DNA of 64,000 bases from an uncultured Flavobacteriaceae bacterium (GTDB taxonomy: Bacteria > Bacteroidota > Bacteroidia > Flavobacteriales > Flavobacteriaceae), in NCBI GenBank assembly GCA_905181625.1, contig CAJIYJ010000003.1, positions 248,001 through 312,000 on the forward strand, given 5' to 3'. The notes under the pieces are model-generated. The model had not been told where the DNA came from, searched no databases, and worked only from the letters and a program-made list of their open reading frames with translations. Every line of letters begins with the position of its first letter. Position 1 is the first letter of the stretch. This document shows, in pieces, positions 15,597-46,809 of the stretch. The translations under genes and the position numbers were made by a program.

Positions 15597-15599
15597 AAT

Positions 15600-16460: not shown

Positions 16461-16482
16461 ATCTAGTATTTTTATACTAATT
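16461..16482. promoter_or_regulatory. TetR-type operator, copy 1 (between 16424- and TetR)
   Basis: Left arm ATCTAGTAT, spacer TTTT, right arm ATACTAATT: seven of nine positions are symmetric. It lies in the 80-bp divergent intergenic region, 36 bp from the 16424(-) start and 22 bp from the regulator start. The same palindrome occurs at four other places upstream of island genes. Confidence 0.7.
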
Positions 16483-16504
16483 AAACAAAATCTAATATCA
16501 AAAA

Positions 16505-17152
16505 GTGAGTAGTACAAGAATTAAAATTGTTGAGTCATCTATATTATTATTTAATAATAAGGGTTTAGCTAATGTAAGGCTTCAAGACATAGCTGAATAT
16601 AATAATATTAGTCCTGGAAATTTAACTTATCATTTTAAAACAAAAAGAGATTTAATGGATTATATAATCTATTATATGATAAGAAAATTGGTCGAAAATG
16701 AAGTGAATCAAAAGGAATTACTTAAAGAATTATCTTTATATAAAATTTTTAAAAATCATCTTATTTTTTTGATTAGTTATCGTTTTTTCTTCAGAGATAT
16801 TTTAGAGATTATCAATTTGGTTCCTAATGCTAAATCTGTTTTTAGAGATGTTATAAGAGGAAATGAGAAGTTTACAGCAACATACGTTAATATTGCTATT
16901 GAAAATGGTTTCATGCTTAAAGAATCACACAAAGGTCAGTACTCAACTTTTGCAAAAAATAGCTGGGCAATAGTTAATTCATCATTAACTAAATGGGAAG
17001 TTTTGGAAGATTCTAAATCAAAGTATTCAAATACTATAAAGGAAATTATAGAGCATCATTATCCATATTTGACTAAAAAAGGAGTAGATAGATATAAAAA
17101 AAGAAAAAAGGAGATATCAGAAAAAATAGCAAAAGATTTTAAAACCCTTTAA
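16505..17152 (+). CDS. TetR/AcrR family transcriptional regulator
   Basis: 215 residues with a GTG start (GTG AGT AGT ACA). The N-terminal helix-turn-helix reads RIKIVESSILLFNNKGLANVRLQDIAEYNNISPGNLTYHFKTKRDLMDYI, the TetR pattern including the FKTK/YHF recognition-helix end. The C-terminal region is an all-helical ligand pocket with many Phe/Tyr (FFFRDILEII), suiting a hydrophobic or acyl-CoA ligand. It is divergently transcribed from the operon starting at 16424 with an operator between them. I infer autoregulation and control of the operons that carry the same palindrome. Confidence 0.88.
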   Translation: MSSTRIKIVESSILLFNNKGLANVRLQDIAEYNNISPGNLTYHFKTKRDLMDYIIYYMIRKLVENEVNQKELLKELSLYKIFKNHLIFLISYRFFFRDILEIINLVPNAKSVFRDVIRGNEKFTATYVNIAIENGFMLKESHKGQYSTFAKNSWAIVNSSLTKWEVLEDSKSKYSNTIKEIIEHHYPYLTKKGVDRYKKRKKEISEKIAKDFKTL

Positions 17153-17157
17153 TCTAT

Positions 17158-17958
17158 TTATATTGGATAGTAATCTGGTTTTATAGTAGTTGGAAATGTA
17201 ATTCTAAAAGTTTCAGCACCTGAAAAGTTTGGAGCTAGTAATCTTTCCCTGGTGAATTCACCAGTTATTCCATTAAAAATTCCTGTACCTCCTAGAATAG
17301 TACCATTAAAAATCTGACCTTTAATTCCCCAAACAAATAACATAATACCTGTAATAGTATCTTTTGCCGGTTCATTAACATCTCCATGGTTTTTTGATCT
17401 GAAAGCAAAAGTAGCTGTTTGTTCCAAGATTATTTTATTATCTAGTTTTTTACACTCTACGGCACTTTTAATATAAGCTTCTATTATCTGTTTTTTTGAA
17501 CTTGTAGGAATCAGTTTTCTGTTAATAGAACTCGCTATAAACTCACTTGAAATTTCTGTAAAAAACCTATTCATCGCGGTAAAGTTTCCAATTACTCTAT
17601 TAGGGTATTTAGCCGTTTGAACCATTGGATCATCTTTTTCTAACTTTAAACCTCCTGAAGTTTTTTCTATAAAATGAGGATCTTTTGGATCTAATTCTAG
17701 TGGGTTACAACACTCATTGTCTTGAATAGTACTGTTGCTGTAAATTGGACCACCACCATGTAAGATTAAACCATTACTATTTACTTCTTTTTTAGAAAGT
17801 GAAAATAATTTTGATTTTATTGAATAGGGAATAAAAGGAATTCTAGAAAGAATAAATTTTCTTTTAATAGAAGATAAATTACTTACCATTTCCAGGTTAA
17901 ATGTTTGTCCAAACAATGGTCCGTTCGAAACTGACTCTATTACTAAGTTATTGTACAT
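17158..17958 (-). CDS. Hypothetical protein with possible AOC-barrel/dirigent-like C-terminus
   Basis: 266 residues without signal peptide. I do not recognise the family. The C-terminal segment (about residues 215-255: FNGTILGGTGIFNGITGEFT..., then ETFRITF) matches the 'GGTGxFxGxxGxxT' pattern of allene oxide cyclase-barrel and dirigent-like proteins, which bind small hydrophobic molecules. The N-terminal half contains paired Cys (NECCNPLEL) and a GGGP turn. It is the last gene of the dehalogenase / DJ-1 / sulfatase operon, 10 bp after the sulfatase, and converges on the TetR gene 5 bp away. Confidence 0.5.
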   Translation of the reverse strand: MYNNLVIESVSNGPLFGQTFNLEMVSNLSSIKRKFILSRIPFIPYSIKSKLFSLSKKEVNSNGLILHGGGPIYSNSTIQDNECCNPLELDPKDPHFIEKTSGGLKLEKDDPMVQTAKYPNRVIGNFTAMNRFFTEISSEFIASSINRKLIPTSSKKQIIEAYIKSAVECKKLDNKIILEQTATFAFRSKNHGDVNEPAKDTITGIMLFVWGIKGQIFNGTILGGTGIFNGITGEFTRERLLAPNFSGAETFRITFPTTIKPDYYPI

Positions 17959-17968
17959 AGTTATTGTT

Positions 17969-20290
17969 TTACCAAGGAAAATAATATTTTTTAGAATTTT
18001 CTGAATTACTTATTGGAATTGAAACATCAGCATTTGATTTCCATATGGGTTCTTTTAAAGTATTATTCCACTGTTCCCAACTTTCAGTAAGTTTTTTTGC
18101 TTTTTCAGGGTATTTTGAAATTAAATTAAATTTTTCAGATGGGTCATTTTCTAAATTTATTAAAGTCCTAAAATTTTCTTTTTCGTTTATATGTAATTTA
18201 AAATTATCTGATATTATGGATTTTACATAACCTGTTTTCCAAAACAATTCTTTGTGTGGTTTTTTATCTTTTGATTTTATATATGGTAGCAATGAAACTC
18301 CATCAAATGTATTACTTAGAGAAGGTGACTTAACGGCATCTAATATAGTAGGAACAATATCTAGTAAACTGACCATATTAGAATAATTTCCTTGAGGTTT
18401 GATTTTATTAGTCCATTCTATTATCATAGGAACTGTAGTTCCACCTTCAAAATTTGACATCTTTCCTCCAATAAATGGTGAATTATCAGTAGCTCTAGTA
18501 TAAGTAGCCCCGCCGTTATCACTTGTAAAAATAATTAATGTATTTTCCGCAATTCCTTCATCATTAAGAGCTTTTTTAATTTCACCAATACTATCATCTA
18601 AATTCTTTATCATAGCATAATAAACTCTTTTATTATGATCCTTAATGTGTGAGAATTGGTCATAATATTTTTTTTGAGCCTGAAAAGGTCCATGAGGAGC
18701 CATATGAGATAAGTGTAGAAAAAATGGTTTATTTTTATTTACTTTAATGTAATCAACTGCTCTTTTTGTAAAAACATCTGTTAAATATTCTGAATTTTTT
18801 GGAATTGTTTTTTTTCCATTTTCTAGAGTGTGATAATTAGTTGCCTGCCAAATTATAAAGTCAGCAAAATCCCATGTATGTCTAGATTCTATAATATTAT
18901 CCTGATTAATTGGAGCGTATAGTGATCCAGCCCCTGAAATTCCATAATGAAAGTCAAATCCAAAATTTGTAGCATTAAATTTTGAATTTGTTCCCATATG
19001 CCACTTTCCAATTACAGAAGTCTGGTAACCCATTTTCTTTAAATAATCTCCTATTGTATTTACAAAAGGATTTAAACCTCTTTTATTAATAGGAGTATCA
19101 TTTTCATACCATTTTTTGAAATTATCTTGATGTCCAAATCTTTTGAAATCTGCTTTTCTAACTCTAGGACTATAATTAAATAGATCTGGTAAGAATTCAA
19201 ATCCATATCTCTGTTGATAGTTGCCTGTTAAAAATGCAGCTCTTGAAGGCGCACATACTGAAGCTGTAGCATAAGCTCTAGAAAAATTAATTCCGTTTTT
19301 AGCTATTTGATCAATATTTTTAGTCTCTATTAATGTATTACCATTATATGAAATATCGTTGTACCCTAAATCGTCTGCAACAATTAAAATTACATTAGGA
19401 CTAACTGTTTTATTCAATGATAGATCTGTGTATACTGCAGGATTAGAGTCAGAAAAAACAAATGAATTATAAAATGATATAAATGAAAAAATTATAATAA
19501 TTGAAAAACCAGTATAAACAAGCTTTAGTTTATTTTTAAGGTAAAACCATATCAGTTCGCTTAACAACAGTGTGGGTAAAAAATATTTCCAGGTCCTTGT
19601 AAATTCATCTTCAAAAAATCCTATTGGAGAGTCAACTCCTATTTCAAAATGGTAAAGATGAATCTCGATAAGCTGAATAATCCAAGCTAATATGGATCCT
19701 GAAATGGAGATAAAAAGTATTTTTTTAATTGAACCTTTTAGTTTTTTATTAGCTACTTTATTTATATAGTATAAGCCTGGAAAAACAAGAATTATAAAAA
19801 GTAGGATTATTCTAAAAAAAGACTTGTCGCTTACTGTTGTTGGCAATGCAAACAGAACGTAATTAGTCGTAATTAAAGCAGTTGTTATTATTGCAAACAA
19901 GTAGAGTAGAAGCTTACTGAAATTATTTGCTAAACTTTTTTTTTTAATTATAAAATATATACCAATACATCCTAACACAAGATGAAAAAATCCAGGTGCA
20001 GGAGTTTCAAATCCAGAACTCAAGTTTGATTGAATAACTGAGTAAGCTATTCCGATATTAAAAATTGAAAATATAATTAAAAAAGGTTTGTGTAAATTAT
20101 TAAGATTAAAAAAATTCCAAATATATAATGCGAAAAGTCCAAGGGAAAATGCGGCTACGCCATACATTTTCGCAAAACCTAAAGTAAGTTGACTGGCATT
20201 ATTAAATTGAGGTATTTTATCAGCAGCAAAAAACAAAACTATCCCTGCTAGAATTTCAAAAAATGCTATTAAAAGAAAAAACTTTTTCAT
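17969..20290 (-). CDS. Sulfatase fused to a multi-pass N-terminal membrane domain
   Basis: 773 residues. Residues 1-280 contain about nine hydrophobic segments (for example 3-23, 38-62, 70-88, 101-116, 128-148, 158-176, 190-210, 236-251, 258-279). A sulfatase domain follows: ILIVADDLGYND with Asp306/Asp307, then the formylglycine motif C-A-P-S-R at 346-350 and AAFLTGNYQQRYG, GKWHMGT, LSHMAPHGPFQ, FTSDNGG. The first 115 residues resemble the stand-alone 117-residue membrane protein at 60584-60937 (MYGVAAFSLGLFAL versus MYGGAAFSIAIFAL). The fusion would hold the sulfatase at the outer face of the inner membrane. It shares one base with the DJ-1-like gene (TAATG). Confidence 0.88.
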   Translation of the reverse strand: MKKFFLLIAFFEILAGIVLFFAADKIPQFNNASQLTLGFAKMYGVAAFSLGLFALYIWNFFNLNNLHKPFLIIFSIFNIGIAYSVIQSNLSSGFETPAPGFFHLVLGCIGIYFIIKKKSLANNFSKLLLYLFAIITTALITTNYVLFALPTTVSDKSFFRIILLFIILVFPGLYYINKVANKKLKGSIKKILFISISGSILAWIIQLIEIHLYHFEIGVDSPIGFFEDEFTRTWKYFLPTLLLSELIWFYLKNKLKLVYTGFSIIIIFSFISFYNSFVFSDSNPAVYTDLSLNKTVSPNVILIVADDLGYNDISYNGNTLIETKNIDQIAKNGINFSRAYATASVCAPSRAAFLTGNYQQRYGFEFLPDLFNYSPRVRKADFKRFGHQDNFKKWYENDTPINKRGLNPFVNTIGDYLKKMGYQTSVIGKWHMGTNSKFNATNFGFDFHYGISGAGSLYAPINQDNIIESRHTWDFADFIIWQATNYHTLENGKKTIPKNSEYLTDVFTKRAVDYIKVNKNKPFFLHLSHMAPHGPFQAQKKYYDQFSHIKDHNKRVYYAMIKNLDDSIGEIKKALNDEGIAENTLIIFTSDNGGATYTRATDNSPFIGGKMSNFEGGTTVPMIIEWTNKIKPQGNYSNMVSLLDIVPTILDAVKSPSLSNTFDGVSLLPYIKSKDKKPHKELFWKTGYVKSIISDNFKLHINEKENFRTLINLENDPSEKFNLISKYPEKAKKLTESWEQWNNTLKEPIWKSNADVSIPISNSENSKKYYFPW

Positions 20291-21147
20291 TATTCATTTT
20301 TATTTTTTAATATTTCCATCATCTTTTGAGGTGTTTCGTGTCCAGCATTTTGATTTTGCCCAGTTACAAACTTAGCTTCGTCGTCGTAGACTGTTAGGTT
20401 AGCAAATACATCTCTAAATGCTGTTTTACTCTCAAATATTACACCTGCTTTTATTAACTCATCTTCAGGGTGTTGTGGCGTAAAGTCAATTCCTAATTCT
20501 TTGATTTGTTTACTTGTAACCCCTGTCATTCTTTTGTTTTCTATAATTAAGTTACCCAAAGAATCTTTGGCTTTAATAAAACCCAAAACTCCGTGACATA
20601 CAGCCCCTATTACAGTTTTTTTGTTGTAATAGGCTTGACTAATTTTTTTTCCAAGAATTTCAGAGTAACCTAAATCATAGGCTGCTCCCCATCCACCAGA
20701 AATAAATACTAAATCATACTGATTCATTTCTAAATCGTCAATCAATATTGAGTTTTTAACTTTTTTCAGAAGAATATTATCATCAAGATACCAATCATCT
20801 TCTTTAGTCTTAATTGCATAAAAAAATGATTCAGGATCAATAGGGATTTCACCTCCTTTTATACTTGCTATATCAACTTCAATTCCTGAATTAATGAATT
20901 CATAATATGGCACGGTTAATTCTGATGCAAATACTCCAGTTAATTTACCATCAGTCTCCCCAGGCTTACTTAATACACTATGGCTTGTGGAAATAATTAC
21001 AGCTTTTTTATTTTTAAAATCATAGTTTTTACTTCCTTCAAAGACTGGATGTAAACCTGCGTTATTTAACAATGTAGGTAAGAAAATAAAAAACATTATT
21101 ATTATTCCAGAAATAAGTCCAATTATTTTTAAAGTTTTTTTCTTCAT
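20290..21147 (-). CDS. DJ-1/PfpI superfamily protein, membrane-anchored
   Basis: 285 residues. An N-terminal hydrophobic anchor (IIGLISGIIIMFFIFLPTLL) precedes a class I glutamine-amidotransferase-like domain. The nucleophile elbow is GAVCHGVLGF (Cys-His), the acid region is FISGGWGAAYDLG, and the oxyanion/C-terminal region is FVTGQNQNAG. This is closest to the Hsp31/glyoxalase III-like branch of the superfamily. Possible roles are an isomerase/hydratase or aldehyde detoxification. It is translationally coupled on both sides (TAATG overlaps), in the operon led by the dehalogenase-like gene. Confidence 0.8.
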   Translation of the reverse strand: MKKKTLKIIGLISGIIIMFFIFLPTLLNNAGLHPVFEGSKNYDFKNKKAVIISTSHSVLSKPGETDGKLTGVFASELTVPYYEFINSGIEVDIASIKGGEIPIDPESFFYAIKTKEDDWYLDDNILLKKVKNSILIDDLEMNQYDLVFISGGWGAAYDLGYSEILGKKISQAYYNKKTVIGAVCHGVLGFIKAKDSLGNLIIENKRMTGVTSKQIKELGIDFTPQHPEDELIKAGVIFESKTAFRDVFANLTVYDDEAKFVTGQNQNAGHETPQKMMEILKNKNE

Positions 21148-22286
21148 TAAATTTTATTTTTCACTATAAATTTATGCATTCTATCTGCCATCATTTCACC
21201 AATATCTTCTTGAATAAAATGATTGGCTTCTTTGAATTGCTCATGATTTTGACCTTTAGCCCCCGGAACCATTTTTATAAATCTGTTCTGAATTCTTGGA
21301 GTTCCAAGCAGATTATCCTGTAACCCAATTAAAGATAAAAAAGGTTTTTCAAATTTTTTTAAACCCTCAATTGCTTTTAAAGTCTGTCCTGTAATACCGG
21401 CATTCATTGAAGGTAATGTTCTAGGTCCTGCCATGTAAATGAAAGAGGGGAATGGAGCGCTGTAAGCATTGAGAATATCATCACTTTTTTTAAAATTTCT
21501 TGAAAAAGATAATTTCATAATACTTTTAATATCAACCATTGGAGCCGTTAAACAGTAGAGTATCCATGCTTGAAAGCTTTCTACAGCAAACCCTCCAATT
21601 GAATAATAAGCCATAGCACCAACAAAACTTTTGATTTTAGTGTTAATTTCAATTGTTTCTGGAATATATAGAGGATTTGTTTCTTTAGTAAAATTTGGAA
21701 GTTCAGCATTAGCTGCAATTATTCCTGAAAATAAATTAGGGTTTTCACCAGCAATTCTAAGTCCAATAAGACTTCCCCAATCTTGGCAAAAAAGAGTCAT
21801 GTTCTTTAACTTAAGCCCATTAATAAAAGTCAGAATATTCTCACAATGTGTTTCATATGTATGATATTTAATTGAAATAGGCTTATCTGATTTACCCATA
21901 CCTATTAGATCTGGTGCAATACACCTATATCCTTTAGATAACAAGTCATGAATCATTGTGCGATACAAGTAGGACCACACAGGTTGACCATGAAGAAGTA
22001 ATAAGATTTTGCCATCACTTGGGCCTGCATCTATATAATGAATTTTTATTCCATGTAAATCAAAATAGTTTTCATTAAAATTATAGTCAGGTAGATTTAA
22101 AAAACATTTTGAAGGGGTTTTTACATATTCAATTCCGTTTTGTGTTTTATGAATTTTAACATTATTATCCCAATATACTGTTTCTGGAAGTGGAGCTATA
22201 TTTTGTATTTTTCGACCTTTGGCTTCTCTATCAATTTTTATTGAAGAACCAATTATTTTTACAATTAATTTTTTAAGCTTCCTCAT
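21147..22286 (-). CDS. Haloalkane dehalogenase-like alpha/beta hydrolase
   Basis: 379 residues. An extended N-terminus of about 70 residues precedes an alpha/beta hydrolase core. HGQPVWSYLYR (99-109) corresponds to the haloalkane dehalogenase HGEPTWSYLYR. The nucleophile elbow is CQDWGSLIGLR, with Asp169 as nucleophile and Trp170 as in dehalogenases. The general-base His is likely in EANHFIQED near the C-terminus. The oxyanion/halide motif has Gln instead of Glu. It could also be an epoxide hydrolase or an ester-type hydrolase. It is first in its operon, with a perfect operator palindrome 5 bp before the start codon. Confidence 0.78.
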   Translation of the reverse strand: MRKLKKLIVKIIGSSIKIDREAKGRKIQNIAPLPETVYWDNNVKIHKTQNGIEYVKTPSKCFLNLPDYNFNENYFDLHGIKIHYIDAGPSDGKILLLLHGQPVWSYLYRTMIHDLLSKGYRCIAPDLIGMGKSDKPISIKYHTYETHCENILTFINGLKLKNMTLFCQDWGSLIGLRIAGENPNLFSGIIAANAELPNFTKETNPLYIPETIEINTKIKSFVGAMAYYSIGGFAVESFQAWILYCLTAPMVDIKSIMKLSFSRNFKKSDDILNAYSAPFPSFIYMAGPRTLPSMNAGITGQTLKAIEGLKKFEKPFLSLIGLQDNLLGTPRIQNRFIKMVPGAKGQNHEQFKEANHFIQEDIGEMMADRMHKFIVKNKI

Positions 22287-22291
22287 ATAAT

Positions 22292-22313
22292 AATTAGTAT
22301 TACAATACTAATT
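22292..22313. promoter_or_regulatory. TetR-type operator, copy 2 (perfect palindrome)
   Basis: AATTAGTAT, spacer TACA, ATACTAATT: perfect 9-bp arms. The site ends 5 bp before the start codon at 22286, where a bound repressor would cover the transcript start. Confidence 0.78.
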
Positions 22314-22335
22314 TAAATAAAAATGTATAAAAAAA

Positions 22336-22851
22336 CTATTTAATCACAATACTTTTTTGAAGAGACTTGTAATAATCTAAAGATTCTTTGTCTTTTTTCT
22401 CTACAAGTATTCTGACGATCATAAAACCTTTTTCAACAGGTGATTTTATAGTATTTTCTTTTAAATTATTATTTAGAGATAGTTTGAGATCCAGTTTGTT
22501 GGTGTTAAATTCCTGATCATTTTTCACGTACCAGTTAATTGTGTTTGGTTTGTAAAAAGAAACAGACCAATAGGATGAATCAGGCATATTTCCTTTTAAA
22601 TTCAAATCTTTTTTAGATAGATCATAAAAACTAACAGAATATAAAAAATCAGGATTTGGCATTACTACATCTCTAGACTGATCGCTTGGAATGTCAAAAT
22701 GTTTTATTTCATTATCCTTTATGTTTTGATTTTTTTCAATTTTATAATGAAAGACTTCGTAAACTAATTTTGGAATATAATTTATTGTTAATTGATATGA
22801 ACCAAAGCTCATCAATAATAAAAATAATAAATAGAAAAATATTTTCTTCAT
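22336..22851 (-). CDS. DUF1254-like membrane-anchored protein
   Basis: 171 residues with an N-terminal signal anchor (IFFYLLFLLLMSFGSYQLTI). The core reads SRDVVMPNPDFLYSVSFYDLSKKDL...SSYWSVSFYKPNTINWYV, the typical start of DUF1254 domains. It is truncated relative to full DUF1254-DUF1214 proteins because the second half is encoded by the gene upstream, with which it overlaps by 4 bp. Such pairs occur near lipid or xenobiotic catabolism genes. Their biochemical role is not established to my knowledge. Confidence 0.68.
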   Translation of the reverse strand: MKKIFFYLLFLLLMSFGSYQLTINYIPKLVYEVFHYKIEKNQNIKDNEIKHFDIPSDQSRDVVMPNPDFLYSVSFYDLSKKDLNLKGNMPDSSYWSVSFYKPNTINWYVKNDQEFNTNKLDLKLSLNNNLKENTIKSPVEKGFMIVRILVEKKDKESLDYYKSLQKSIVIK

Positions 22852-23423
22852 TTTTCTATTCTTTTAATTAAGGGAAGTTCTATAGAATCTAAGTTGTTAT
22901 ATACTTCTTTATCAGGGTTATATAATCTTAATGTAATATGAAATTGCTTTTCATTTCCAGAGGGTAACCAATTTGAATTCTTTTTTGTAGAGGATATGGT
23001 TATTGGATGATTTTTTTCAAAATTTTCTTTATTAATATTATAAACATCAGTCTTGTTATTTACTAGATAATAATCCCCCCCATATAATGTGTAACTCCAA
23101 TATCTGCCAGCTGGGGGATTTCCAGTTATTTCATAATCGAAATCAGAGGATAAATTTTTACCCATGTTATCTTTACTTGACAAGAAATAAAGAGCTTCTT
23201 TTTCGTCAAGAGCAAAAACACCTATTCTTGAAATATAAGCTCTTTGATAACTATCCTTTAAATCCATTTTAGGATTTACAATCCAATTTCCGTTTTTAAT
23301 AGAAAACTCATTGTTTTGTGTAGAGGAATTAATACTTGAAATAGCTATAAATGTACCTATAAAAAAAGATATTATAATTAATATTGGAACTAATATTAGC
23401 TTGTTTTCGATTAGCTTTTTCAT
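22848..23423 (-). CDS. DUF1214-like membrane-anchored protein
   Basis: 191 residues with an N-terminal hydrophobic anchor (KLILVPILIIISFFIGTFIAI). The body has the DUF1214 pattern: YQRAYISRIGVFALDEKEALYF, GNPPAGRYWSYTLYGGDYYLV, ISSTKKNSNWLPSGNEKQFHITLRLYNPDKEVYN and a final LPLIKRI. It overlaps the MBL gene and the DUF1254-like gene by 4 bp each, so translation of the three is coupled. Probable periplasmic face of the inner membrane. Confidence 0.72.
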   Translation of the reverse strand: MKKLIENKLILVPILIIISFFIGTFIAISSINSSTQNNEFSIKNGNWIVNPKMDLKDSYQRAYISRIGVFALDEKEALYFLSSKDNMGKNLSSDFDYEITGNPPAGRYWSYTLYGGDYYLVNNKTDVYNINKENFEKNHPITISSTKKNSNWLPSGNEKQFHITLRLYNPDKEVYNNLDSIELPLIKRIEK

Positions 23424-24445
23424 TTTACTACAAATTTATCTCCATCGTTTGCTACATGTATTTTTCCATTAAAATTTTTAGTTTCCTTTTCATATATTTT
23501 TTTTATCACAATATTATCTGGCGCAGGAATTAAATGATGTAAAATAAGCGTTTTAATACCGGCTTTGTTTGCTAAACTAACTATTTCATTTGGCGGAGTG
23601 TGATAATCCTGAATATCATTAATAATGTGCGAATTTCTTACCATTAATTTTTTGTCAAGTACTTTAATAGTTTTATCTAATAGAGAGTTTAATATTACTT
23701 CATGTATTAATAAATCAGCATTTTTAGCCATTTCAAAAACAAGATCATTAGCTTTTGTATCTCCACTTATAACTACTTTTTTATTATTGTATTCAATAAC
23801 ATAGCCAACAGACGGAGAAACAGGGTAATGATTTACATTAAAAGCGGTTATTTTTATTCCATCATTCTCGTATATTATCTGCTTATTCTGATTTTTAAAC
23901 TCATTAGAAACTCCAAAAGCATATTTGATATTCATTATCTGAGAACCATGATGATCAACTCTGTGTTTGTTTTCTAATTTTAAAAAAGATTTATTACTAT
24001 CAAGTATTTCTTTTAATCCCTTTGGTCCGTAAACATTTAAGTCTTTGTTTCTTCCAAGGACCCATGATCTATTAATCATGTAAGGAAGGTCAATATAATG
24101 GTCAGAATGATAATGAGTTATAAAAATACCATCTAAATCATTTAATGGTAAGTTCATACTCTCTGCTTTTTGAACAACACCATCACCAACATCAAAAATG
24201 AAAAATTTATTATTAACAAATAAAGCTGTTCCTGATTGAACTCTATCTGCACTTAGTGGTGAACCGGTTCCAATAGTAAATACAGTAATTTCATCTTTAT
24301 CTAATGATAAATTATTTTTATTTTGTTCAATAGTATAATTGATTAAAATTTTAGAAATTTTTTCAGGATAAAAATTGATAATTGAAATACAAAAAAATAT
24401 TAATGACGATGTAAATAAAATAATGTGTTTAATTTTTTTATTCAT
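23420..24445 (-). CDS. MBL-fold hydrolase (arylsulfatase/RNase Z-like)
   Basis: 341 residues with an N-terminal hydrophobic anchor. The metallo-beta-lactamase fold shows TIGTGSPLSADRVQSGTALFV, the metal motif HYHSDH (111-116), SGDTKANDLV with a metal-bridging Asp, and a late HHL. The N-terminal GTGSP and DVGDG motifs are those of AtsA-type arylsulfatases and RNase Z relatives. Export suggests a hydrolase of small esters rather than an RNase. In an island with two formylglycine sulfatases, a sulfatase role is tempting but unproven. Confidence 0.8.
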   Translation of the reverse strand: MNKKIKHIILFTSSLIFFCISIINFYPEKISKILINYTIEQNKNNLSLDKDEITVFTIGTGSPLSADRVQSGTALFVNNKFFIFDVGDGVVQKAESMNLPLNDLDGIFITHYHSDHYIDLPYMINRSWVLGRNKDLNVYGPKGLKEILDSNKSFLKLENKHRVDHHGSQIMNIKYAFGVSNEFKNQNKQIIYENDGIKITAFNVNHYPVSPSVGYVIEYNNKKVVISGDTKANDLVFEMAKNADLLIHEVILNSLLDKTIKVLDKKLMVRNSHIINDIQDYHTPPNEIVSLANKAGIKTLILHHLIPAPDNIVIKKIYEKETKNFNGKIHVANDGDKFVVK

Positions 24446-25263
24446 TATGAAATTTTCATCATTTTTTTAGCCCAATTAACCATGAATTTCATAGTTAATC
24501 TTTGAGAAAACCTTGATAATAAATACATAAACTTTGCATCTGGACCTATTACTATTCTAGTTTTCTTTTTTTTAATTGCATAAATAATTTTATCTGCTGT
24601 TTGATCTGCAGTGGTTGGAAAATGAGCGTCTAATTTTTTTAATTGTCCTTCTGTCAGGTTTTGTCCTTCAATGTTTCTTACTATATTAGTTTTAATACCC
24701 CCTGGATGAACACTTGTAACTACTACTCCAGTGTTGTTGCATAATTCTTCTGCTGCTAACGCTTCAGTAAAACCTCTTATGCCAAATTTTGACGTGCTGT
24801 AAGCAGATTGAAAAGGTGATCCTAAAAGACCCCATATACTAGAAATATTAACTACACTTGATTCGTTTTGTTTTCTTAATTCAGGCATAAAAGCTAAAGT
24901 GCCATATATCATTCCCCATAAATTTACTCCCAAAATTTTTTCGTAAGATTCGATTGTTGTTTCAACTGCAGAAATGCTTCCGTTTGTAATTCCAGCATTA
25001 TTAATAACAACATCTACTTTTTTATAATGTTGAATTACATTTTTAGCAAATTGATCAAAATCCTCTTTGTTTGAAACGTCGAATATTTCACTATAAATTT
25101 CACTAGTCGATCCAATTAACTTAATTGTTTCTTTAAGAGAATTTTTATTAAAATCATTTAAAGCTAACATAACTCCTTTTTCGTGTAATTTTACAGCAAG
25201 AGAACGACCAATTCCTGATCCAGCTCCAGTAATTACCACTATTTTATTTTTTAAATTTTTCAT
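24445..25263 (-). CDS. SDR family oxidoreductase
   Basis: 272-residue short-chain dehydrogenase: TGAGSGIG (12-19), NNAG (88-91), NISSIWGLLG (139-148) and YSTSK (Tyr155, Lys159). The C-terminal extension is basic and partly hydrophobic (KFMYLLSRFSQRLTMKFMVNWAKKMM), as in membrane-associated SDRs acting on hydrophobic alcohols. It lies 8 bp after the sterol-desaturase-family gene and shares one base with the MBL gene. Confidence 0.86.
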   Translation of the reverse strand: MKNLKNKIVVITGAGSGIGRSLAVKLHEKGVMLALNDFNKNSLKETIKLIGSTSEIYSEIFDVSNKEDFDQFAKNVIQHYKKVDVVINNAGITNGSISAVETTIESYEKILGVNLWGMIYGTLAFMPELRKQNESSVVNISSIWGLLGSPFQSAYSTSKFGIRGFTEALAAEELCNNTGVVVTSVHPGGIKTNIVRNIEGQNLTEGQLKKLDAHFPTTADQTADKIIYAIKKKKTRIVIGPDAKFMYLLSRFSQRLTMKFMVNWAKKMMKIS

Positions 25264-25271
25264 TAATTTTT

Positions 25272-26153
25272 TTAAGATTGGTAGTCTTTGTAATCTTTTG
25301 ATGGATCAAAATCTATATCTGTTTTAATTGAACTCAGTTCACTTCTTGGGTCTTTAGATCTAATAATCGGAAACAGTAGTTGAACATACCAAGGCTCTTT
25401 CATTTTATTCCAAGCTCCAAAACGCTTAGGATATTTCCTGGTTATTTTAGCAGTTCCAAACAAAACATCCCAAAAAAACAATAAATTACCGTAGTTTCCA
25501 TTAGGATTAGACACTCCATCTTCTGAAGTTAAACCATGATGAGCATAATGTGTACAAGGAGTAGATATGGTTCGTTCAACTATCCAAGCCAAGGGGTGTA
25601 ATATTTTGTATTTATATAAAAACCTATCCCATCTAATTTCACTGTGAGCAAGTAAGATAACAGCCATTTTTATAGGTAAATAATATAAATAAACTTCTAT
25701 CATACCCAAATAGATTAAAAGTGCAGAGAACCAGATTCCTGGCATAAATGCATAATATAAAACGGCATTTCTGTACGTCACTAAAACACCCATTTCTTCA
25801 ACAACATGATGAGGGCGGTGAAGCTTCCACATAAAAGGATTTTCATGAGAGAGTCTATGCCATAAATATTGGGTAAGATCATCTAAGATTGTAAAGGCTA
25901 AAACATGCCACAAAAAAAAAGTATTTATAAAAAAGTCTTCATAGAGAGGGAACCATAAATCCATTACAAATAAAACAAAAAGCAGAATGGCAGGTTGAAT
26001 TAGTGTAGGTAAAACAGTAAGAGAGATCAGTTCGATAGTTAGATCATCTTTAGATCTTTTATCATTAAAATATAATCCTCCAAATGATTCAATTATTCCT
26101 AGAATTACAAGAATTATTGCGGGAATTAATTTACTGATACTTTCGTTATCCAT
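25272..26153 (-). CDS. Sterol desaturase/fatty acid hydroxylase family protein
   Basis: 293-residue integral membrane di-iron enzyme. The histidine clusters are HRLSH (99-103), HRPHH (112-116) and HYAHH (202-206), plus His170 (LLAHSEIRWDR). These clusters define the superfamily that hydroxylates or desaturates sterols, fatty acids and carotenoids using O2. Hydrophobic segments flank the clusters (residues 10-28, 45-65, 73-90, 137-168). It leads an operon of five genes with an operator 10 bp upstream, so it may carry out an early oxygenation of a hydrophobic substrate. Confidence 0.88.
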   Translation of the reverse strand: MDNESISKLIPAIILVILGIIESFGGLYFNDKRSKDDLTIELISLTVLPTLIQPAILLFVLFVMDLWFPLYEDFFINTFFLWHVLAFTILDDLTQYLWHRLSHENPFMWKLHRPHHVVEEMGVLVTYRNAVLYYAFMPGIWFSALLIYLGMIEVYLYYLPIKMAVILLAHSEIRWDRFLYKYKILHPLAWIVERTISTPCTHYAHHGLTSEDGVSNPNGNYGNLLFFWDVLFGTAKITRKYPKRFGAWNKMKEPWYVQLLFPIIRSKDPRSELSSIKTDIDFDPSKDYKDYQS

Positions 26154-26163: not shown

Positions 26164-26185
26164 AAATAGTAAATAAATACTAATT
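26164..26185. promoter_or_regulatory. TetR-type operator, copy 3
   Basis: Left arm AAATAGTAA, spacer ATAA, right arm ATACTAATT (perfect consensus half). The core TAGTA-N6-TACTA is intact. It sits 10 bp upstream of the start codon at 26153. Confidence 0.62.
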
Positions 26186-28912: not shown

Positions 28913-28930
28913 AAAACAATTACAGATCAG

Positions 28931-31352: not shown

Positions 31353-34076
31353 TTAGAAATCATGTTTTAAAGAAACAATAATTTGTCTTCCCAATTGTGC
31401 CATGTTTGGAAACACACTGTATTGTTCATCCATTAAGTTAATAACGTTTAGACCTAAAGAAGTTTTTGAATTTATGTTGTAGCCTAAATTAGCGTCCACA
31501 AGGTTTCTTTTCAATACTGTTCCTGAATAAAAACTACCCATGTTTGCGTCAAAACCTCCATCATACTTATAGGCGATTCCATAATTAAATTTTTCTGAAC
31601 CATACATCATTCCTGCTTTTGCTCTATGTTTAGAATGATTTAATGACCATGTTCCTGTTTCAAGTAAACTACCGACATCATCTTGTTTGAATGTTGTTTG
31701 ACTTACAGTAGAATAATTTCCGTAAAATGTTAAATTATCGTTAGCTCTCCACTTCATACCTGTTTCAAATCCCCAGTAATTAACTTTTCCAAAGTTTTTG
31801 TAGCCAATCATAATATTAGGTTCTCCGTCTGTTGTAGGAGCTTGATCACTTTCAATAACACCTAAGGCTCCTGCTGCAGAAACCATACCTGCCACTGCTG
31901 CATATTGATTTGCTAAAGCTGATGCATAGGCAGCTCCATATATTGGTCCATATGTTGGTGTAAGTGATGATGTGAAGAATGGTAATAATGTAGCGCCTAA
32001 GTCTGAACCTAGTGTTGGTAATGCTACCAATGGACTTAGTTGTACTGTAGCAACAAAATTTTCTTTTATTGCATTATAAACATTGAAATTCCAAGTTAAT
32101 TTATCAGATAACATCCCCTTATACCCTAATTCATAATGTGTTTCAGTTTGAAGTGTTCCCTTGTCTCCGTCTTCAAGTGGGCCAAATGGTTTTCCATTTA
32201 AATCTAACAATGCTCCATTTGTGAATCCATTTAGACCAGCTACTGAAGCTAGAGTGTTCTGACTAGCTAAGAAAGGGATAAAGCCTGCTAATGGAGTGCC
32301 TGCTAAACCAGGTAATAAAAGCGAATTTACTAAGGCAAATGCAGTTGCATGATTCATTCCAATCCCTGTATTTTTAGGAAGTGCACCACCTCCTACTAAC
32401 CATGTTGTTTGAATATTGTTGAAAGTTTGCGCATCTCTATTTCCGTAAATCCATACATTGCCATAACCAATATCTTGTACTTGTTGATCAAGGAACAAGT
32501 TTAAAGCTGAAGGAGCAACATAAGCTTTGTTAAATGTTAATCTTAAACTATGCCTATTACTAGGCTTGAAAACAAGTGCAGCTCTTGGAGAAAATGAATT
32601 TTCTCCAATTGCTGGGTAATGATCATGTCTTCCAGCTAACTGTAAGTTTAGTTTATCTGATAGATCCGTTTTAGTTGAGAAATAAGCACCATAAACTCTG
32701 TAATCATCGCTACTTTCATTTCTTCCAAAAGTTCCTCCATTAGTTTCAAAAGTTGCTCCTGAATGCTCTACTCCAATAGACATTTTAGTGTTTATTTGAT
32801 CAAAAGATAATTCATATTGAACTTGTAATTGAGATTGTTTACTTGCTACTCCACTTACTGCTCCAGCTCGGTAAGCAAATCCAGCATACTTATCTTCTTT
32901 ATGAGGTTGAATATTTGTAAAATTCCATTGAGCAAATAAGTTTTTACTTTGTACTCTAGCTTGAACAAATGCTTGTGCTTGTGTAGCTCTACTTTCTCCA
33001 GTTGATCCAGTCAAAAAGTTACCAGCTGTTTCGTTTATTCCACTTGCTAAAGTAAAAGAAAAATCATTGGAAGGTCTATAGTAAAGAGTAGCGTCTGCTC
33101 CTCTAGCTGCTGCTCTTTCTTGCCACTTTCCACCAATTGATCTAACTACTCTTCCAGAAGGATCTTTAATGTCATCTGCAAATTGAGCTACTGTACTTGC
33201 GGGTAAATCAAAATCTTCGTTTTCTTGATATTTTAAATTAAATTTATATCCAAAAGTTTTTTCTTTATTACTTACTGCATGTCTAAATAACATTTTTTGC
33301 ATATTTAAATCAAACTTTCCAGCTTTTTCAAAACCTCCAGTTTGTAAAAGTATAGTAGATCCAGGATATTTGAAAGGATCTTTACTTAAGTAATGTACAA
33401 CTCCAGCTCCTACACCTGGTCCATATAGTGCAGAGGCAGGTCCTCTTACGACTTCAACTCTTTCTAAGTCAATGTTGCTTAAGTTACTGGCATCAGCATC
33501 AAAAAAATTAAGACCAGCAAGATTCATTGTTCTATAGTCTAACATTATAAGAGTAGAGGTAGTAAAAACATCCACGTTATCTCTTAACGAAATGTTAGTT
33601 CTATTTGCACCTTGTTTGTCAATTTGAACTCCTAATACATCATCTAATAAGGCCATAGAGTTAAAAGCTGATTTATTTTCTATTTCTTTAGCGCCTATAA
33701 CTGTTATTGAAGAAGCAGCATTCATTACTTTTTCTGCTTTTCTTGATCCAGAAATAACTACTTCATCTAATATTTCTCCTGATGAAAGGCTAATTGAAAC
33801 AACGTCAGAAGTTGATTTCACGTTAATAGTTTGGTTTTGATAGCCTATATAGCTTATTTCTAAAGTCCAAGGCAAATCCTTATCAGAAGATAGAGTGAAT
33901 ACTCCATTATCCCCTGTTACAACTCCAGTTGTAGTACCCTGTATAATTACATTTACTCCATATATAGCATCTACACCATCAGTAATTTTTCCTGTTACAG
34001 TGTTAGTTTGAGCATTAACCATCAAAAATGTGGCTAATAATAAAGTCAAACTGGATAAATAAAATTTAAATTTCAT
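31353..34076 (-). CDS. TonB-dependent outer-membrane receptor
   Basis: 907 residues: signal peptide (to about residue 22), CarboxypepD_reg-like domain (VTGKITDGVDAIYGVNVIIQGTTTGVVTGDNGVF), plug domain with VVISGSRKAEKVMNAASSITVI and RVEVVRGPASALYGPGVGAGVVH, then the 22-strand barrel ending in QIIVSLKHDF with a terminal Phe. Two inserts in putative loops are strikingly hydrophobic and Ala/Gly-rich (about residues 590-640 and 690-765, for example PGLAGTPLAGFIPFLAS and AAYASALANQYAAVAG). There is no SusD partner. It probably imports a hydrophobic compound. An operator lies 54 bp upstream and a terminator behind. Confidence 0.92.
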   Translation of the reverse strand: MKFKFYLSSLTLLLATFLMVNAQTNTVTGKITDGVDAIYGVNVIIQGTTTGVVTGDNGVFTLSSDKDLPWTLEISYIGYQNQTINVKSTSDVVSISLSSGEILDEVVISGSRKAEKVMNAASSITVIGAKEIENKSAFNSMALLDDVLGVQIDKQGANRTNISLRDNVDVFTTSTLIMLDYRTMNLAGLNFFDADASNLSNIDLERVEVVRGPASALYGPGVGAGVVHYLSKDPFKYPGSTILLQTGGFEKAGKFDLNMQKMLFRHAVSNKEKTFGYKFNLKYQENEDFDLPASTVAQFADDIKDPSGRVVRSIGGKWQERAAARGADATLYYRPSNDFSFTLASGINETAGNFLTGSTGESRATQAQAFVQARVQSKNLFAQWNFTNIQPHKEDKYAGFAYRAGAVSGVASKQSQLQVQYELSFDQINTKMSIGVEHSGATFETNGGTFGRNESSDDYRVYGAYFSTKTDLSDKLNLQLAGRHDHYPAIGENSFSPRAALVFKPSNRHSLRLTFNKAYVAPSALNLFLDQQVQDIGYGNVWIYGNRDAQTFNNIQTTWLVGGGALPKNTGIGMNHATAFALVNSLLLPGLAGTPLAGFIPFLASQNTLASVAGLNGFTNGALLDLNGKPFGPLEDGDKGTLQTETHYELGYKGMLSDKLTWNFNVYNAIKENFVATVQLSPLVALPTLGSDLGATLLPFFTSSLTPTYGPIYGAAYASALANQYAAVAGMVSAAGALGVIESDQAPTTDGEPNIMIGYKNFGKVNYWGFETGMKWRANDNLTFYGNYSTVSQTTFKQDDVGSLLETGTWSLNHSKHRAKAGMMYGSEKFNYGIAYKYDGGFDANMGSFYSGTVLKRNLVDANLGYNINSKTSLGLNVINLMDEQYSVFPNMAQLGRQIIVSLKHDF

Positions 34077-34130: not shown

Positions 34131-34152
34131 AAACAGTATTAAAATACTAATA
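34131..34152. promoter_or_regulatory. TetR-type operator, copy 4
   Basis: Left arm AAACAGTAT, spacer TAAA, right arm ATACTAATA. Core AGTAT-N4-ATACT is intact and the outer bases degenerate. It lies 54 bp upstream of the TonB receptor start, a normal promoter distance. Confidence 0.62.
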
Positions 34153-41010: not shown

Positions 41011-41056
41011 GTTTATATATTTGATGTTAAGTTATTATAATATTCTTATATATTCT

Positions 41057-41099
41057 AATACAGTATTCTAAATACAAATTTTTATAATATATTTGTATT
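41057..41099. promoter_or_regulatory. Palindromes in the transporter/TetR intergenic region
   Basis: There are two inverted repeats: AATAC-A-GTATT at 41057-41067, and AATACAAAT (41071-41079) with ATTTGTATT (41091-41099), perfect 9-bp arms 11 bp apart. They lie 22 bp before the TetR start at 41121 and 47 bp before the transporter start at 41010. They differ from the five-copy operator and may be the site of the second regulator. Confidence 0.5.
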
Positions 41100-41120
41100 A
41101 TAAACATAGTTATTACTGTA

Positions 41121-41747
41121 ATGAATAAAACTAAGCAACGTATAATTTTAAGAGCAATTAATCTTTACAATAATAGAGGTTTTACTAATGTTTTGAATCA
41201 AGATGTTGCTAAAGAATCCGAAATTAGCTTAAGTAATTTTAATTATCATTTTCCAGCAAAAAAAGATTTAATATTGGCTGTGTGTGCTTATTTGAGTCAA
41301 GAGCTCGAAATTAGAATTTCGAGAGATAAACTTTTTTCAGGAAATTTTATTGGACTTGAAATCACTAAAATATTTTTAGAATTTGAAAGAGATTTTAAGT
41401 TTTTTTATCTTGATACTTTTAATATTTTAAATTGTTATCCAGCTATAAAAGTAGAGATGATTAGGCAGGTAAATAATGCAGTTGAAATGATTAAAAATTT
41501 AAACTTTATGTCAATTGGAAAAGGATATTTAAAACCCGAGCCTGTTGATAATCCGGGTTTGTATGATCATGTCGCAAATCAAATATGGATGCACAATTTC
41601 TTTTGGTATGCTCAATCTGATTTAAGAGACTTAAATGATAACACAATTATTAAAAAAGGATTGGAATCAAGTTATGCAATAATTTACCCCTATCTTACTG
41701 AATTAGGAATTGAAAAATATCAAGAATACCTGAATAATATTAAATGA
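41121..41747 (+). CDS. TetR/AcrR family transcriptional regulator
   Basis: 208 residues. The helix-turn-helix reads RIILRAINLYNNRGFTNVLNQDVAKESEISLSNFNYHFPAKKDLILAVCAYL. It is a diverged paralogue of the regulator at 16505 (both have NNxG, NxxYHF and KxDL at equivalent positions). The ligand domain is rich in aromatic residues. It is divergent from the transporter and 95 bp upstream of the carboxyltransferase gene. It probably controls this right-hand part of the island. Confidence 0.87.
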   Translation: MNKTKQRIILRAINLYNNRGFTNVLNQDVAKESEISLSNFNYHFPAKKDLILAVCAYLSQELEIRISRDKLFSGNFIGLEITKIFLEFERDFKFFYLDTFNILNCYPAIKVEMIRQVNNAVEMIKNLNFMSIGKGYLKPEPVDNPGLYDHVANQIWMHNFFWYAQSDLRDLNDNTIIKKGLESSYAIIYPYLTELGIEKYQEYLNNIK

Positions 41748-41842
41748 TTGCCAGCTTTCATTGATATAGTTTCTAAATATCAGTATGTTTTCATTTATTT
41801 TGTATTTTTAAATTTAATATAACTCAATATATTTTTTATTTA

Positions 41843-43441: not shown

Positions 43442-43449
43442 TATTTACT

Positions 43450-44262: not shown

Positions 44263-44337
44263 TTTTATAAAAATATTATGCACGCATAGTATTAATTTAT
44301 ATTTTTATTTAATTATTAATAATTAAAAAAAAACAAT

Positions 44338-45333
44338 ATGATTGATAATAAATTTGTAAAATTAATGAAACGTCCTTCTGGATTTCCTTCCAAGGACACA
44401 TGGTCACATGATAATGAACAGGTTAAGGCTGTAAAAGACGGAGAGATTTTAATTAAAAATTTATATGTTTCATTAGATCCTGCAATGAGGGGATGGTTAA
44501 ATGAAACTAGATCTTATATTCCTCCAGTAAAAATTGGAGAAGTTATGAGAGCTGGAACTATAGGAGAAGTGATTGAGTCTAAAAATTCAAAATTTAAAAA
44601 AGGTGATATTCTCTCTGGTTGGGGTGGTGTTCAACAATATTCTATTTCTGATGGAAAGGGATATTTCAAGGTTAATCCAACTCAAATTCCATTACAAACT
44701 TATATAGGAACTTTGGGAATGCCAGGAATGACAGCATACTTTGGAATTCTTGAAGTTGGAAAAATTAAAGAAGGTGATACCGTTTTGGTTTCTGCAGCAG
44801 CTGGTGCAGTTGGAAGTATCGTAGGCCAAATTGCTAAGATAAAGGGATGTAAAGTTATTGGAATAGCAGGTGGTAAGGAAAAGTGTGATTATGTAATAAA
44901 GGAATTAGGTTTTGATGGATGTATAGATTATAAAAATGAAAGTGTAAAAAGAGGAATTAAGAGAGAATGTCCTGATGGAATAGATGTTTATTTTGATAAT
45001 GTTGGAGGTGAAATTTTAGATTCAGCTTTAGTATTTTTAAGAATGGGAGCCAGAATTGTTATTTGTGGAGCAATTTCTCAATACAATGAAATGTCAGCAA
45101 AAGGACCTGATAATTATTTATCACTTCTTGTTAATAGAGCGACTATGAAGGGTATGGTTGTTTTTGATTATGCTAATAAATACCCATTAGCTACTAAGGA
45201 AATGACTCAATGGATTATTGATGGAAGTTTGAAATCTAAAGAAGATATACATGATGGGATAGAAAATTTTTATGAAATTTTTAAAAAGTTATTTAACGGA
45301 GAAAAAAAAGGTAAATTAATATTAAAATTATAA
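44338..45333 (+). CDS. NADP-dependent MDR oxidoreductase (curA/leukotriene-B4 reductase-like)
   Basis: 331-residue medium-chain dehydrogenase/reductase without zinc ligands. Motifs are [65 protein letters not shown] and [11 protein letters not shown]. Family members reduce the C=C of alpha,beta-unsaturated ketones using NADPH. It lies 2 bp upstream of a thiolase gene. It probably saturates an enone intermediate. Confidence 0.87.
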
Positions 45334-45335
45334 AA

Positions 45336-46517
45336 ATGAGAGATGCATTAATTGTTTCAACGGCGAGAACACCATTAGGTAAATCATATAGAGGAGCGTT
45401 CAACAATACAACAGCACCAACAATGGCTGGATGGGCTATAGAAGAAGCTGTTAAAAGATCGGGAGTTGATCCTAATAAAGTTGATGATGTAATTATGGGT
45501 GCCGCTCTTCAGCAAGGAACATCTCACGGGAATATTGCTAGAAATGCAGCCTTGGCAGCAGGTCTTCCTGTTACTGTTAGTGGAATGAGTGTTGATAGAC
45601 AGTGTTCTTCAGGAATGATGGCAATTTCTACAGCAGCCAAACAGATTATCACTGATGGAATGGATATTGTAGTAGGTGGAGGGTTAGATTCTATAAGTTT
45701 AGTTCAAACGCAAAAAATGAATTTAGATAGGTATGTAGATAAAAAACTAGTGGCTAAACACAATCATATTTATATGCCTATGCTTCAAACAGCTGAAGTA
45801 GTAGCTAAAAGATATAAAATTTCTCGCGAAGATCAAGATCAGTACGCTTTAGAAAGTCAAATAAAAACAGCTAATGGTCAGGATGAAGGTAAGTTTGATG
45901 ATGAAATTATTTCTGTTACAACTTCAATGGGAATTATGGATAAAGAAACTAAAGAAGTTTCATTTATTGAAAAAACACTTTCTAAAGATGAATGTAATAG
46001 ACCTTCTACAACTATTGAAGGATTAAGATCTTTAAAACCTGTTATAAAAGGTGGATCAATTACTGCTGGTAATGCTAGTCAACTTTCAGATGGAGCCTCT
46101 GCTTGTGTATTGATGGAATCTACTATTGCAGCTAAGCATAATGTGACTCCACTTGGAATTTATAGAGGAATTGCAGTAGCGGGTTGTGAGCCAGATGAAA
46201 TGGGTATAGGTCCAATTTATGCAGTTCCTAAACTTTTAAAGCAAAATGGTCTTAAAATGAGTGATATTGGATTATGGGAGTTAAATGAAGCATTTGCGGT
46301 ACAAGTCATTTACTGTAGAGAGGTGCTAGGTATTCCAAATGAAATACTTAATGTAAACGGCGGATCTATTTCAATAGGTCATCCTTATGGAATGAGTGGT
46401 TCTAGAATGGTTGCTCATGCACTTATTGAAGGCAAACGAAGAGGAGCAAAATATGTTGTTTCTACGATGTGTGTTGGAGGTGGAATGGGTGCTGCAGGTT
46501 TATTTGAGGTTGTATAA
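45336..46517 (+). CDS. Acetyl-CoA C-acyltransferase (thiolase)
   Basis: 393 residues: nucleophile Cys90 in [40 protein letters not shown] and the C-terminal catalytic Cys in [13 protein letters not shown]. The YGMSG variant and C-terminal VGGG place it in a degradative thiolase group distinct from the thiolase at 26232, so the island has two thiolases probably specific for different 3-ketoacyl-CoAs. It is followed by a gene relic. Confidence 0.88.
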
Positions 46518-46528
46518 TAATTAATTAA

Positions 46529-46774
46529 AATGTTTAAAAAAATAACTATTTATTCAACATTATTTTGAGACTGCCTAAATCACTTAGACATGCAAAAGAA
46601 AATAAACCTTACGGATTTATATTAGGATTTAATAAAAAAGAAGAAGTAGTTTATAATTTACAAGATTCATCTGGAAAATCAGGATTTTACACTTCAGCTA
46701 TTGAATTCAATGACCAACTTTTTTTAGTTTCAAATGTTTCTAATGAAATTAATGTATATAATCTAGATAAGTGA
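46529..46774 (+). pseudogene. Relic of a strictosidine synthase/SMP-30-like beta-propeller gene
   Basis: A frame open from 46529 ends at 46772-46774 and reads LRLPKSLRHAKENKPYGFILGFNKKEEVVYNLQDSSGK...TSAIEFNDQLFLVSNVSNEINVYNLDK. That is the C-terminal end of strictosidine-synthase/APMAP-like propellers (LPK..RP...PYGFVL...G...NLQDPSG...TS..E..G.LY.GS). The full proteins are about 350-400 residues. An ATG in another frame at 46530 gives MFKKITIYSTLF and a stop, which looks like the remaining original N-terminus. An internal deletion is the simplest explanation. Confidence 0.65.
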
Positions 46775-46787
46775 TACTTTTTTTTTA

Positions 46788-46809
46788 AATTAGTATCGAA
46801 ATACTAATT
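46788..46809. promoter_or_regulatory. TetR-type operator, copy 5 (perfect palindrome)
   Basis: AATTAGTAT, spacer CGAA, ATACTAATT: perfect 9-bp arms, as in copy 2. It lies 34 bp upstream of the SDR start at 46844, at the head of the five-gene plus-strand operon that ends at 51221. Confidence 0.78.

What the first reader, a model, noticed from the sequence alone, without database searches (positions are those of the whole stretch)
16461..46809. Five near-identical palindromes define a local TetR regulon
AATTAGTAT-N4-ATACTAATT occurs at 16461, 22292, 26164, 34131 and 46788 (copies 2 and 5 perfect; the others keep TAGTA/CAGTA-N6-TACTA). Each lies 5-54 bp upstream of a start: the divergent TetR/DUF1330-operon pair, the dehalogenase operon, the sterol-desaturase-family operon, the TonB receptor and the SDR/ACAD-pair operon. 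That covers more than 20 genes over 30 kb on both strands. A site in the promoter of the TetR at 16505 makes that protein the obvious binder.
Basis: partly seen in the sequence, partly recalled or inferred. Interest (0 to 1): 0.85.

Follow-up and report, generated by a model that had tools for sequence, protein, structure and literature searches.

The report
Self-regulated TetR switch for lipid genes
A small DNA palindrome marks the genes that one repressor protein most likely switches on and off for breaking down an unknown lipid-like compound in uncultured marine flavobacteria; relatives that lost the repressor also lost or damaged most of the palindromes.

Summary
The five palindromes are real, at the stated coordinates and beyond chance (0 of 100 shuffles reach five), 5-54 bp upstream of starts. 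Comparison makes the TetR at 16505 (TetR1) the very likely binder. Of 22 genomes of the genus, 12 have TetR1. Where the SDR4/ADHN2 operon was read, 12 of 12 genomes with TetR1 carry an operator there and 0 of 8 without it do. G004 and G318 lie inside the TetR1+ clade, lack TetR1 between retained neighbours, and keep only half of the SDR4 operator. The second TetR (41121) has a close copy in 1 of 10 other genomes searched, so it is not the binder. Corrections: the TonB-receptor site is lineage-specific; the operator sits before SDR4 in some species and before ADHN2 in others; the regulon is not purely local, since a DUF4442 gene beside trxB has a site in three genomes. Likely mechanism: autoregulated repression relieved by a pathway intermediate. 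Binding, ligand and substrate are untested. New member of a known kind (compare KstR2).

The parts
16461..16482 (.). Operator 1, ATCTAGTATTTTTATACTAATT, between divergent TetR1 and the 16424-6877 operon
   Evidence: orthologous site in 12 of 12 TetR1+ genomes, 19 of 22 columns invariant against 19 of 99 flanking columns
22292..22313 (.). Operator 2, perfect palindrome 5 bp upstream of the haloalkane-dehalogenase-like gene
   Evidence: present in 7 of 8 TetR1+ genomes with readable upstream (absent in G305)
26164..26185 (.). Operator 3, 10 bp upstream of the fatty-acid-hydroxylase (sterol desaturase-like) gene
   Evidence: 9-23 bits in the 11 TetR1+ genomes read, the least uniform core site
34131..34152 (.). 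Operator 4, 54 bp upstream of the TonB receptor; 3 mismatches, 20.3 bits; lineage-specific
   Evidence: decayed in G299 (5.9 bits); a TonB site at a different distance in G310
46788..46809 (.). Operator 5, perfect palindrome 34 bp upstream of the SDR4 operon
   Evidence: in other relatives the site sits upstream of ADHN2 instead
16505..17152 (+). TetR1, the proposed repressor, GTG start, 215 aa
   Evidence: PF00440 31.5 bits and PF13972 32 bits; closest solved structures 3nnr and 3rh2
6877..16424 (-). Nine-gene operon: 15600 gene, NMO-like flavoenzyme, sulfatase, SDR, acyl-CoA dehydrogenase, SDR, APH-type kinase, histidine phosphatase, carboxyltransferase
   Evidence: Pfam; gaps below 13 bp
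17158..22286 (-). Four-gene operon: haloalkane dehalogenase-like hydrolase (motif QDW), DJ-1/PfpI, sulfatase (CAPSR motif), unknown protein
22336..26153 (-). Five-gene operon: fatty acid hydroxylase, SDR, metallo-beta-lactamase fold, DUF1214, DUF1254
31353..34076 (-). TonB-dependent receptor with CarboxypepD_reg domain
46844..51221 (+). Five-gene operon: SDR, MaoC hydratase, enoyl-CoA hydratase, two acyl-CoA dehydrogenases (PimC/PimD-like, below those models' cut-offs)
41121..41747 (+). TetR2, the other PF13972 regulator of the genome; not the binder
   Evidence: close copy in 1 of 10 other genomes searched (G299); no site in its promoter

Best explanation
TetR1 is an autoregulated repressor. 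As a dimer it binds the 22-bp palindrome AATTAGTAT-N4-ATACTAATT at its own divergent promoter and 5-54 bp upstream of the first genes of the dehalogenase/sulfatase, fatty-acid-hydroxylase, TonB-receptor and SDR/acyl-CoA-dehydrogenase operons, blocking their transcription. A pathway intermediate, most likely a CoA thioester or acid, releases it, so that about 25 genes for uptake and oxidation of a lipid-like (perhaps sulfated or halogenated) substrate are switched on together. Shown: sites, positions, conservation, and loss or damage of most sites where TetR1 is gone. Inferred: binding, repression, inducer, substrate.
For:: five sites, 0 of 100 shuffles reach five; in 12 of 12 TetR1+ genomes the TetR1-promoter site has 19 of 22 invariant columns against 19 of 99 in the flanks; at <=2 mismatches the 12 TetR1+ genomes hold 47 matches against 12 for the reversed control; the 10 genomes without a TetR1 hit hold 11 against 9. 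Of the 47, 40 lie in the island by my mapping. SDR4/ADHN2-operon site of 20.9 bits or more in 12 of 12 TetR1+ genomes; best 9.9 bits in 8 TetR1- genomes. G318 and G004, inside the TetR1+ clade (support 0.997; sister G312 is TetR1+), lack TetR1 between retained neighbours on one contig, and both keep only the right half of the SDR4 operator; the G318 NMO2 site differs from G312 at a core base (10.9 against 17.5 bits); the second TetR has a close copy only in G299 of 10 genomes. Three genomes not used for the matrix (G310, G311, G313) carry the TetR1-promoter site at 22-26 bits. A DUF4442 gene outside the island has a site in G310 and G317 and a weaker one at the same place in the window's own genome.
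Against: No binding or expression data. The genomes are related, so the 12-to-8 count reduces to about two events. TetR1 is not the only island gene missing: G318 also lacks DUF1214/DUF1254, and G004 also lacks unk17158, NMO1, the dehalogenase and the metallo-beta-lactamase gene. The FA-hydroxylase site stays at about 13 bits in TetR1- G004 and G318, no weaker than in TetR1+ G312 (13.1), so it may be kept for another reason; G318 keeps a 13.6-bit remnant at the dehalogenase. Scattered high-scoring palindromes occur in TetR1- genomes too (20.5 bits in G325, 18.1 in G318), more than my simulated background predicts. Most relatives scored lack the TonB site. The 22 genomes are 51-93% complete, so some TetR1 absences may be gaps. 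The tree uses island proteins, and TetR1 of G324 (75% identity to the window) does not go with its SDR4 operon (96%), which points to recombination or a mixed bin.
Confidence: 0.88

Rival explanations
1. The second TetR of the island (41121) is the binder.
For: Same Pfam C-terminal family and the only other PF13972 member of the genome; lies nearer to the 46788 site.
Against: Among 10 other genomes searched, a close copy is found only in G299 (92%); in the other seven TetR1+ ones the best match (31-34%) is TetR1 itself, yet all nine TetR1+ genomes keep palindromes. No such palindrome in its own promoter.
Confidence: 0.03
2. A regulator outside the island binds the palindromes and TetR1 is a bystander.
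For: Most of the genome was not read gene by gene; a MarR gene lies beside one distal site; other island genes were lost in G004 and G318 too.
Against: In G318 TetR1 is the one gene missing from the interval between unk17158 and the 15600-type gene, and the SDR4 and NMO2 sites are damaged there; the site is very uniform in TetR1's own promoter.
Confidence: 0.07
3. The palindromes are RNA hairpins (5'-UTR elements or terminators), not operators.
For: The perfect copies could form 9-bp stems with 4-base loops; the copy at C7:359517 of the genome does look like a terminator, with a longer stem and a T-run.
Against: One site serves two divergent genes; the arms hold 7, 9, 7, 6 and 9 of 9 possible pairs, and the TetR1-promoter site keeps a T-T mismatch in 12 of 12 genomes; no T-run follows in the reading direction; presence follows TetR1.
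Confidence: 0.03

Closest known systems
KstR2 regulon (mycobacteria and rhodococci; PMC3068626, abstract and passages seen)
   Same: TetR-type repressor, palindrome in its own promoter, 15 genes in several neighbouring operons of CoA-linked catabolism, sites mostly 22-82 bp from starts.
   Different: Motif AnCAAGnnCTTGnT (14 bp), actinobacteria, cholesterol pathway; TetR1 matches KstR2 structures only weakly. The CoA-transferase pair here is closest to succinyl-CoA:3-ketoacid transferases; 6co6 (the steroid ring hydrolase IpdA, name recalled) matches one subunit only at 4.5e-5.
TetR-type FadR regulators (Thermus PMC5597230, Sulfolobus PMC6449355; search listing only)
   Same: TetR-family regulators of fatty acid metabolism; weak fold similarity of TetR1 to SaFadR and Thermus FadR structures.
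   Different: Different sequence and lineage; acyl-CoA binding by TetR1 is untested.
Streptomyces TetR regulators divergent to a neighbour (PMC3511530, abstract seen)
   Same: A divergent neighbour at under 200 bp is the likely target; here 80 bp separate the two starts.
   Different: Here further operons and at least one distant gene carry the site.

Membership tests
TetR family transcriptional repressor (TFR) | TetR_N helix-turn-helix domain above cut-off | tested here: met
   PF00440 31.5 bits, cut-off 24
TetR family transcriptional repressor (TFR) | All-helical fold of the family | tested here: met
   AlphaFold2 model, mean pLDDT 77.9; best PDB fold matches are TetR-family proteins 3rh2 and 3nnr
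TetR family transcriptional repressor (TFR) | Binds a palindromic operator and represses | not testable with these tools
   Only conservation and co-loss of sites
KstR2-type regulators | KstR2 motif AnCAAGnnCTTGnT at targets | tested here: not met
   The conserved site in the TetR1 promoter is TAGTAT-N4-ATACTA (KstR2 motif); I did not scan for the KstR2 motif elsewhere
FadR-like acyl-CoA-responsive TetR | Release by acyl-CoA | not testable with these tools
   No ligand data
Polysaccharide utilisation locus | SusC/SusD pair | tested here: not met
   TonB receptor scores 80 bits on SusC model TIGR04056, cut-off 368; no SusD family among Pfam matches (E<=0.001) of the 40 proteins

The most novel reading that the evidence does not exclude
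The TetR1 regulon is a dedicated catabolic switch for a sulfated and halogenated algal lipid (for instance a chlorosulfolipid-like compound): two sulfatases, a haloalkane dehalogenase-like enzyme, a fatty-acid hydroxylase, a TonB receptor without SusD and a broad set of acyl-CoA enzymes, in streamlined marine flavobacteria.
Probability: 0.08. Interest if true: 0.85.

Novelty: new member of a known kind. Interest (0 to 1): 0.48.

Why it matters
It gives a concrete, testable regulon in an uncultured genus (MAG-121220-bin8 by inference from a relative's record name). One paper names that genus among three clades with the highest pre-bloom Bacteroidetes abundances, together reaching up to about 8.5% (PMC6794258, passages). 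The regulon defines which genes act as one pathway. The paired loss of regulator and operators is a natural knock-out that ties a DNA motif to its protein without an experiment. Finding TetR1's inducer would reveal what the pathway degrades.

Tried and rejected
Tested and rejected: the second TetR as binder; chance palindromes; RNA hairpins or terminators for the five sites. The CoA-transferase pair as steroid ring hydrolases: the closest structures are succinyl-CoA:3-ketoacid CoA-transferases. The carboxyltransferase at 41843 as a marker of isoprenoid breakdown: methylcrotonyl-CoA (440.2 bits) and geranyl-CoA (425.5 bits) carboxylase subunits score alike. The distal Zn-alcohol dehydrogenase site (C3:433111, 22.3 bits) stays undecided: that gene was found in 1 of 22 genus genomes at E<=1e-100.

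Literature: searches (56 papers, 15 listed; 595, 20 listed; 23, 10 listed; 2 listed; 3,630, 10 listed; none). No listed title or abstract start describes this motif or such a regulon in Bacteroidota; the unlisted papers were not seen.

Full report
OBSERVATION. All lie between genes, 5-54 bp before a start codon. In the whole 1.86 Mb assembly the <=3-mismatch pattern finds 23 places on one strand and the reversed control 18, so the weaker copies alone would not be convincing; at <=2 mismatches it is 6 against 0. I looked at all 16 three-mismatch hits outside the window: 11 are inside ORFs of at least 100 aa, and 2 are within 150 bp upstream of an ORF.

SETTING. GC is 30%. The genome is about 91% complete in 8 contigs. 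One relative's record is named 'Cryomorphaceae bacterium BACL29 MAG-121220-bin8'; by matching coordinates it lies in a same-genus genome (G300, G322). MAG-121220-bin8 is a GTDB genus of Flavobacteriaceae with genomes below 2 Mb (PMC6794258, passages). The island holds acyl-CoA dehydrogenases, SDRs, thiolases, hydratases, carboxyltransferases, two sulfatases, a haloalkane dehalogenase-like hydrolase, a fatty-acid hydroxylase, a TonB receptor and two TetR regulators. The hydrolase passes the NCBIfam cut-off of a haloalkane dehalogenase model (287 against 265 bits) and aligns with a solved one across the Asp-Trp motif and a C-terminal histidine (the roles of these residues are recalled).

CONSERVATION. 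Eight named orthologues of TetR1 (73-95% identity; the ninth locus is a 40% partial match and was left out) all carry the site in the TetR1 promoter. Across 12 TetR1+ genomes 19 of 22 site columns are invariant against 19 of 99 flanking columns. Among nine TetR1 proteins 54 of 63 N-terminal residues are invariant against 69 of 152 of the rest, as expected if DNA recognition is constrained. A matrix was built on 17 sites (0 hits at >=17 bits in 2 Mb of simulated sequence, though real TetR1- genomes do hold a few: 20.5 bits in G325 and 18.1 in G318). It gives: TetR1/divergent operon 12 of 12; dehalogenase 7 of 8, and also G311 and G313; FA hydroxylase 9-23 bits in the 11 TetR1+ genomes read; NMO2 has its own site in several relatives but not in the window; TonB in the window and, at another distance, in G310, of 7 TetR1+ genomes scored. 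The SDR4/ADHN2 operon has a site in every TetR1+ genome, but before SDR4 in the window, G299, G300, G301 and G305, before ADHN2 in G302, G303, G304, G306, G310 and G313, and before both in G299 and G311. The operator has thus moved while control of the operon was kept. For G310 and G313 the ADHN2 site lies inside an over-long ORF call and is read.

WHICH PROTEIN. TetR1 is in 12 of 22 genus genomes. In a draw of 299 family genomes it is found in 3: the window's own, one of the same genus and a 33% relative. At <=2 mismatches the TetR1+ genomes hold 47 palindromes against 12 control matches, the other ten 11 against 9. Two of those 11, one of them perfect, are in G307, whose contig ends before the TetR1 place, so I leave it undecided. 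The acyl-CoA dehydrogenase of the SDR4 operon is in 19 of 22 genomes. Reading that operon: a site in 12 of 12 TetR1+ and in 0 of 8 TetR1- genomes (G313 read only through ADHN2, G307 and G314 left out). On a tree of seven island proteins from 21 genomes G004 and G318 fall inside the TetR1+ clade next to TetR1+ G312 (support 0.997). In G318 the genes on both sides of TetR1 are adjacent on one contig; in G004 TetR1 and unk17158 are missing between Sulf2 and the 15600-type gene. In both, the SDR4 operator has lost its left half and the right half AATACTAATA remains; in G318 the NMO2 site differs from G312 at a core base.

AGAINST A PERFECT STORY. The FA-hydroxylase site is no weaker in G004 and G318 (about 13 bits) than in G312, and G318 keeps 13.6 bits at the dehalogenase. 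Both genomes also lost other island genes. The six other TetR1- genomes have no site above 11 bits in the stretches read, but they are 62-87% complete, so TetR1 could in part be missing by gaps. By eye the tree needs at least two changes of TetR1, each with a change of the SDR4/ADHN2 site. G324 has TetR1 at 75% but the SDR4-operon dehydrogenase at 96% identity to the window, and G311 and G312 share nearly the same TetR1 promoter though they lie apart on the tree, so blocks of the island may recombine. The second TetR has a close copy only in G299 of 10 genomes searched.

BEYOND THE ISLAND. In G310 and G317 (the same genome as G303 by its coordinates) a site lies just upstream of a DUF4442 gene next to trxB (Pfam; its place in the hotdog thioesterase fold is recalled). 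The window's own genome has a weaker site (9.6 bits, 3 mismatches) at the same place. A 22.3-bit site precedes a Zn-alcohol dehydrogenase and aldehyde dehydrogenase pair; that gene was found only in this genome of the 22. The site at C7:359517 is part of a longer hairpin with a T-run and is most likely a terminator.

MECHANISM AND NOVELTY. The two most informative positions of the palindrome, a G and a C, lie 11 bp apart, about one helical turn, which suits a TetR dimer (recalled). The fold model resembles 3rh2 and 3nnr, and more weakly KstR2 and FadR structures. Repression fits the site positions and the general behaviour of divergent TetR regulators (PMC3511530, abstract). The best parallel is KstR2 (PMC3068626, passages). 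I therefore file it as a new member of a known kind, with a motif that no listed result of searches describes. What the pathway degrades is open; a sulfated, possibly halogenated, lipid is a guess from gene content.

Noticed in passing
window 41070-41110: The promoter of the second TetR holds another inverted repeat, ATACAAAT...ATTTGTAT, kept in G299; a likely operator of TetR2.
   Followed up: partly
window 44262-44338 and relatives: A conserved hairpin followed by T-rich sequence between ECH1 and ADHN2, probably the terminator of the CarbT2-ECH1 unit.
   Followed up: no
window 21147-22286: Haloalkane dehalogenase-like enzyme with a QDW motif in an island with two sulfatases.
   Followed up: partly
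L120 7007-7028, L054 10513-10534, L137 1557-1578: DUF4442 gene next to trxB carries a regulon-type site in three genomes.
   Followed up: partly
window 51225-53210: 2-oxoadipate dioxygenase/decarboxylase-type gene next to a gene that looks like a saccharopine dehydrogenase (not scanned), suggesting lysine breakdown beside the island.
   Followed up: no
window 26232-30285: Thiolase, acyl-CoA dehydrogenase and SCOT-type CoA-transferase genes sit inside the island without a palindrome and were not seen at this place in most relatives read.
   Followed up: no
G324 (L057, L085, L086) and G311 (L122): The TetR1 block and the SDR4 block have different closest relatives, so the island may recombine in blocks, or a bin is mixed.
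   Followed up: no
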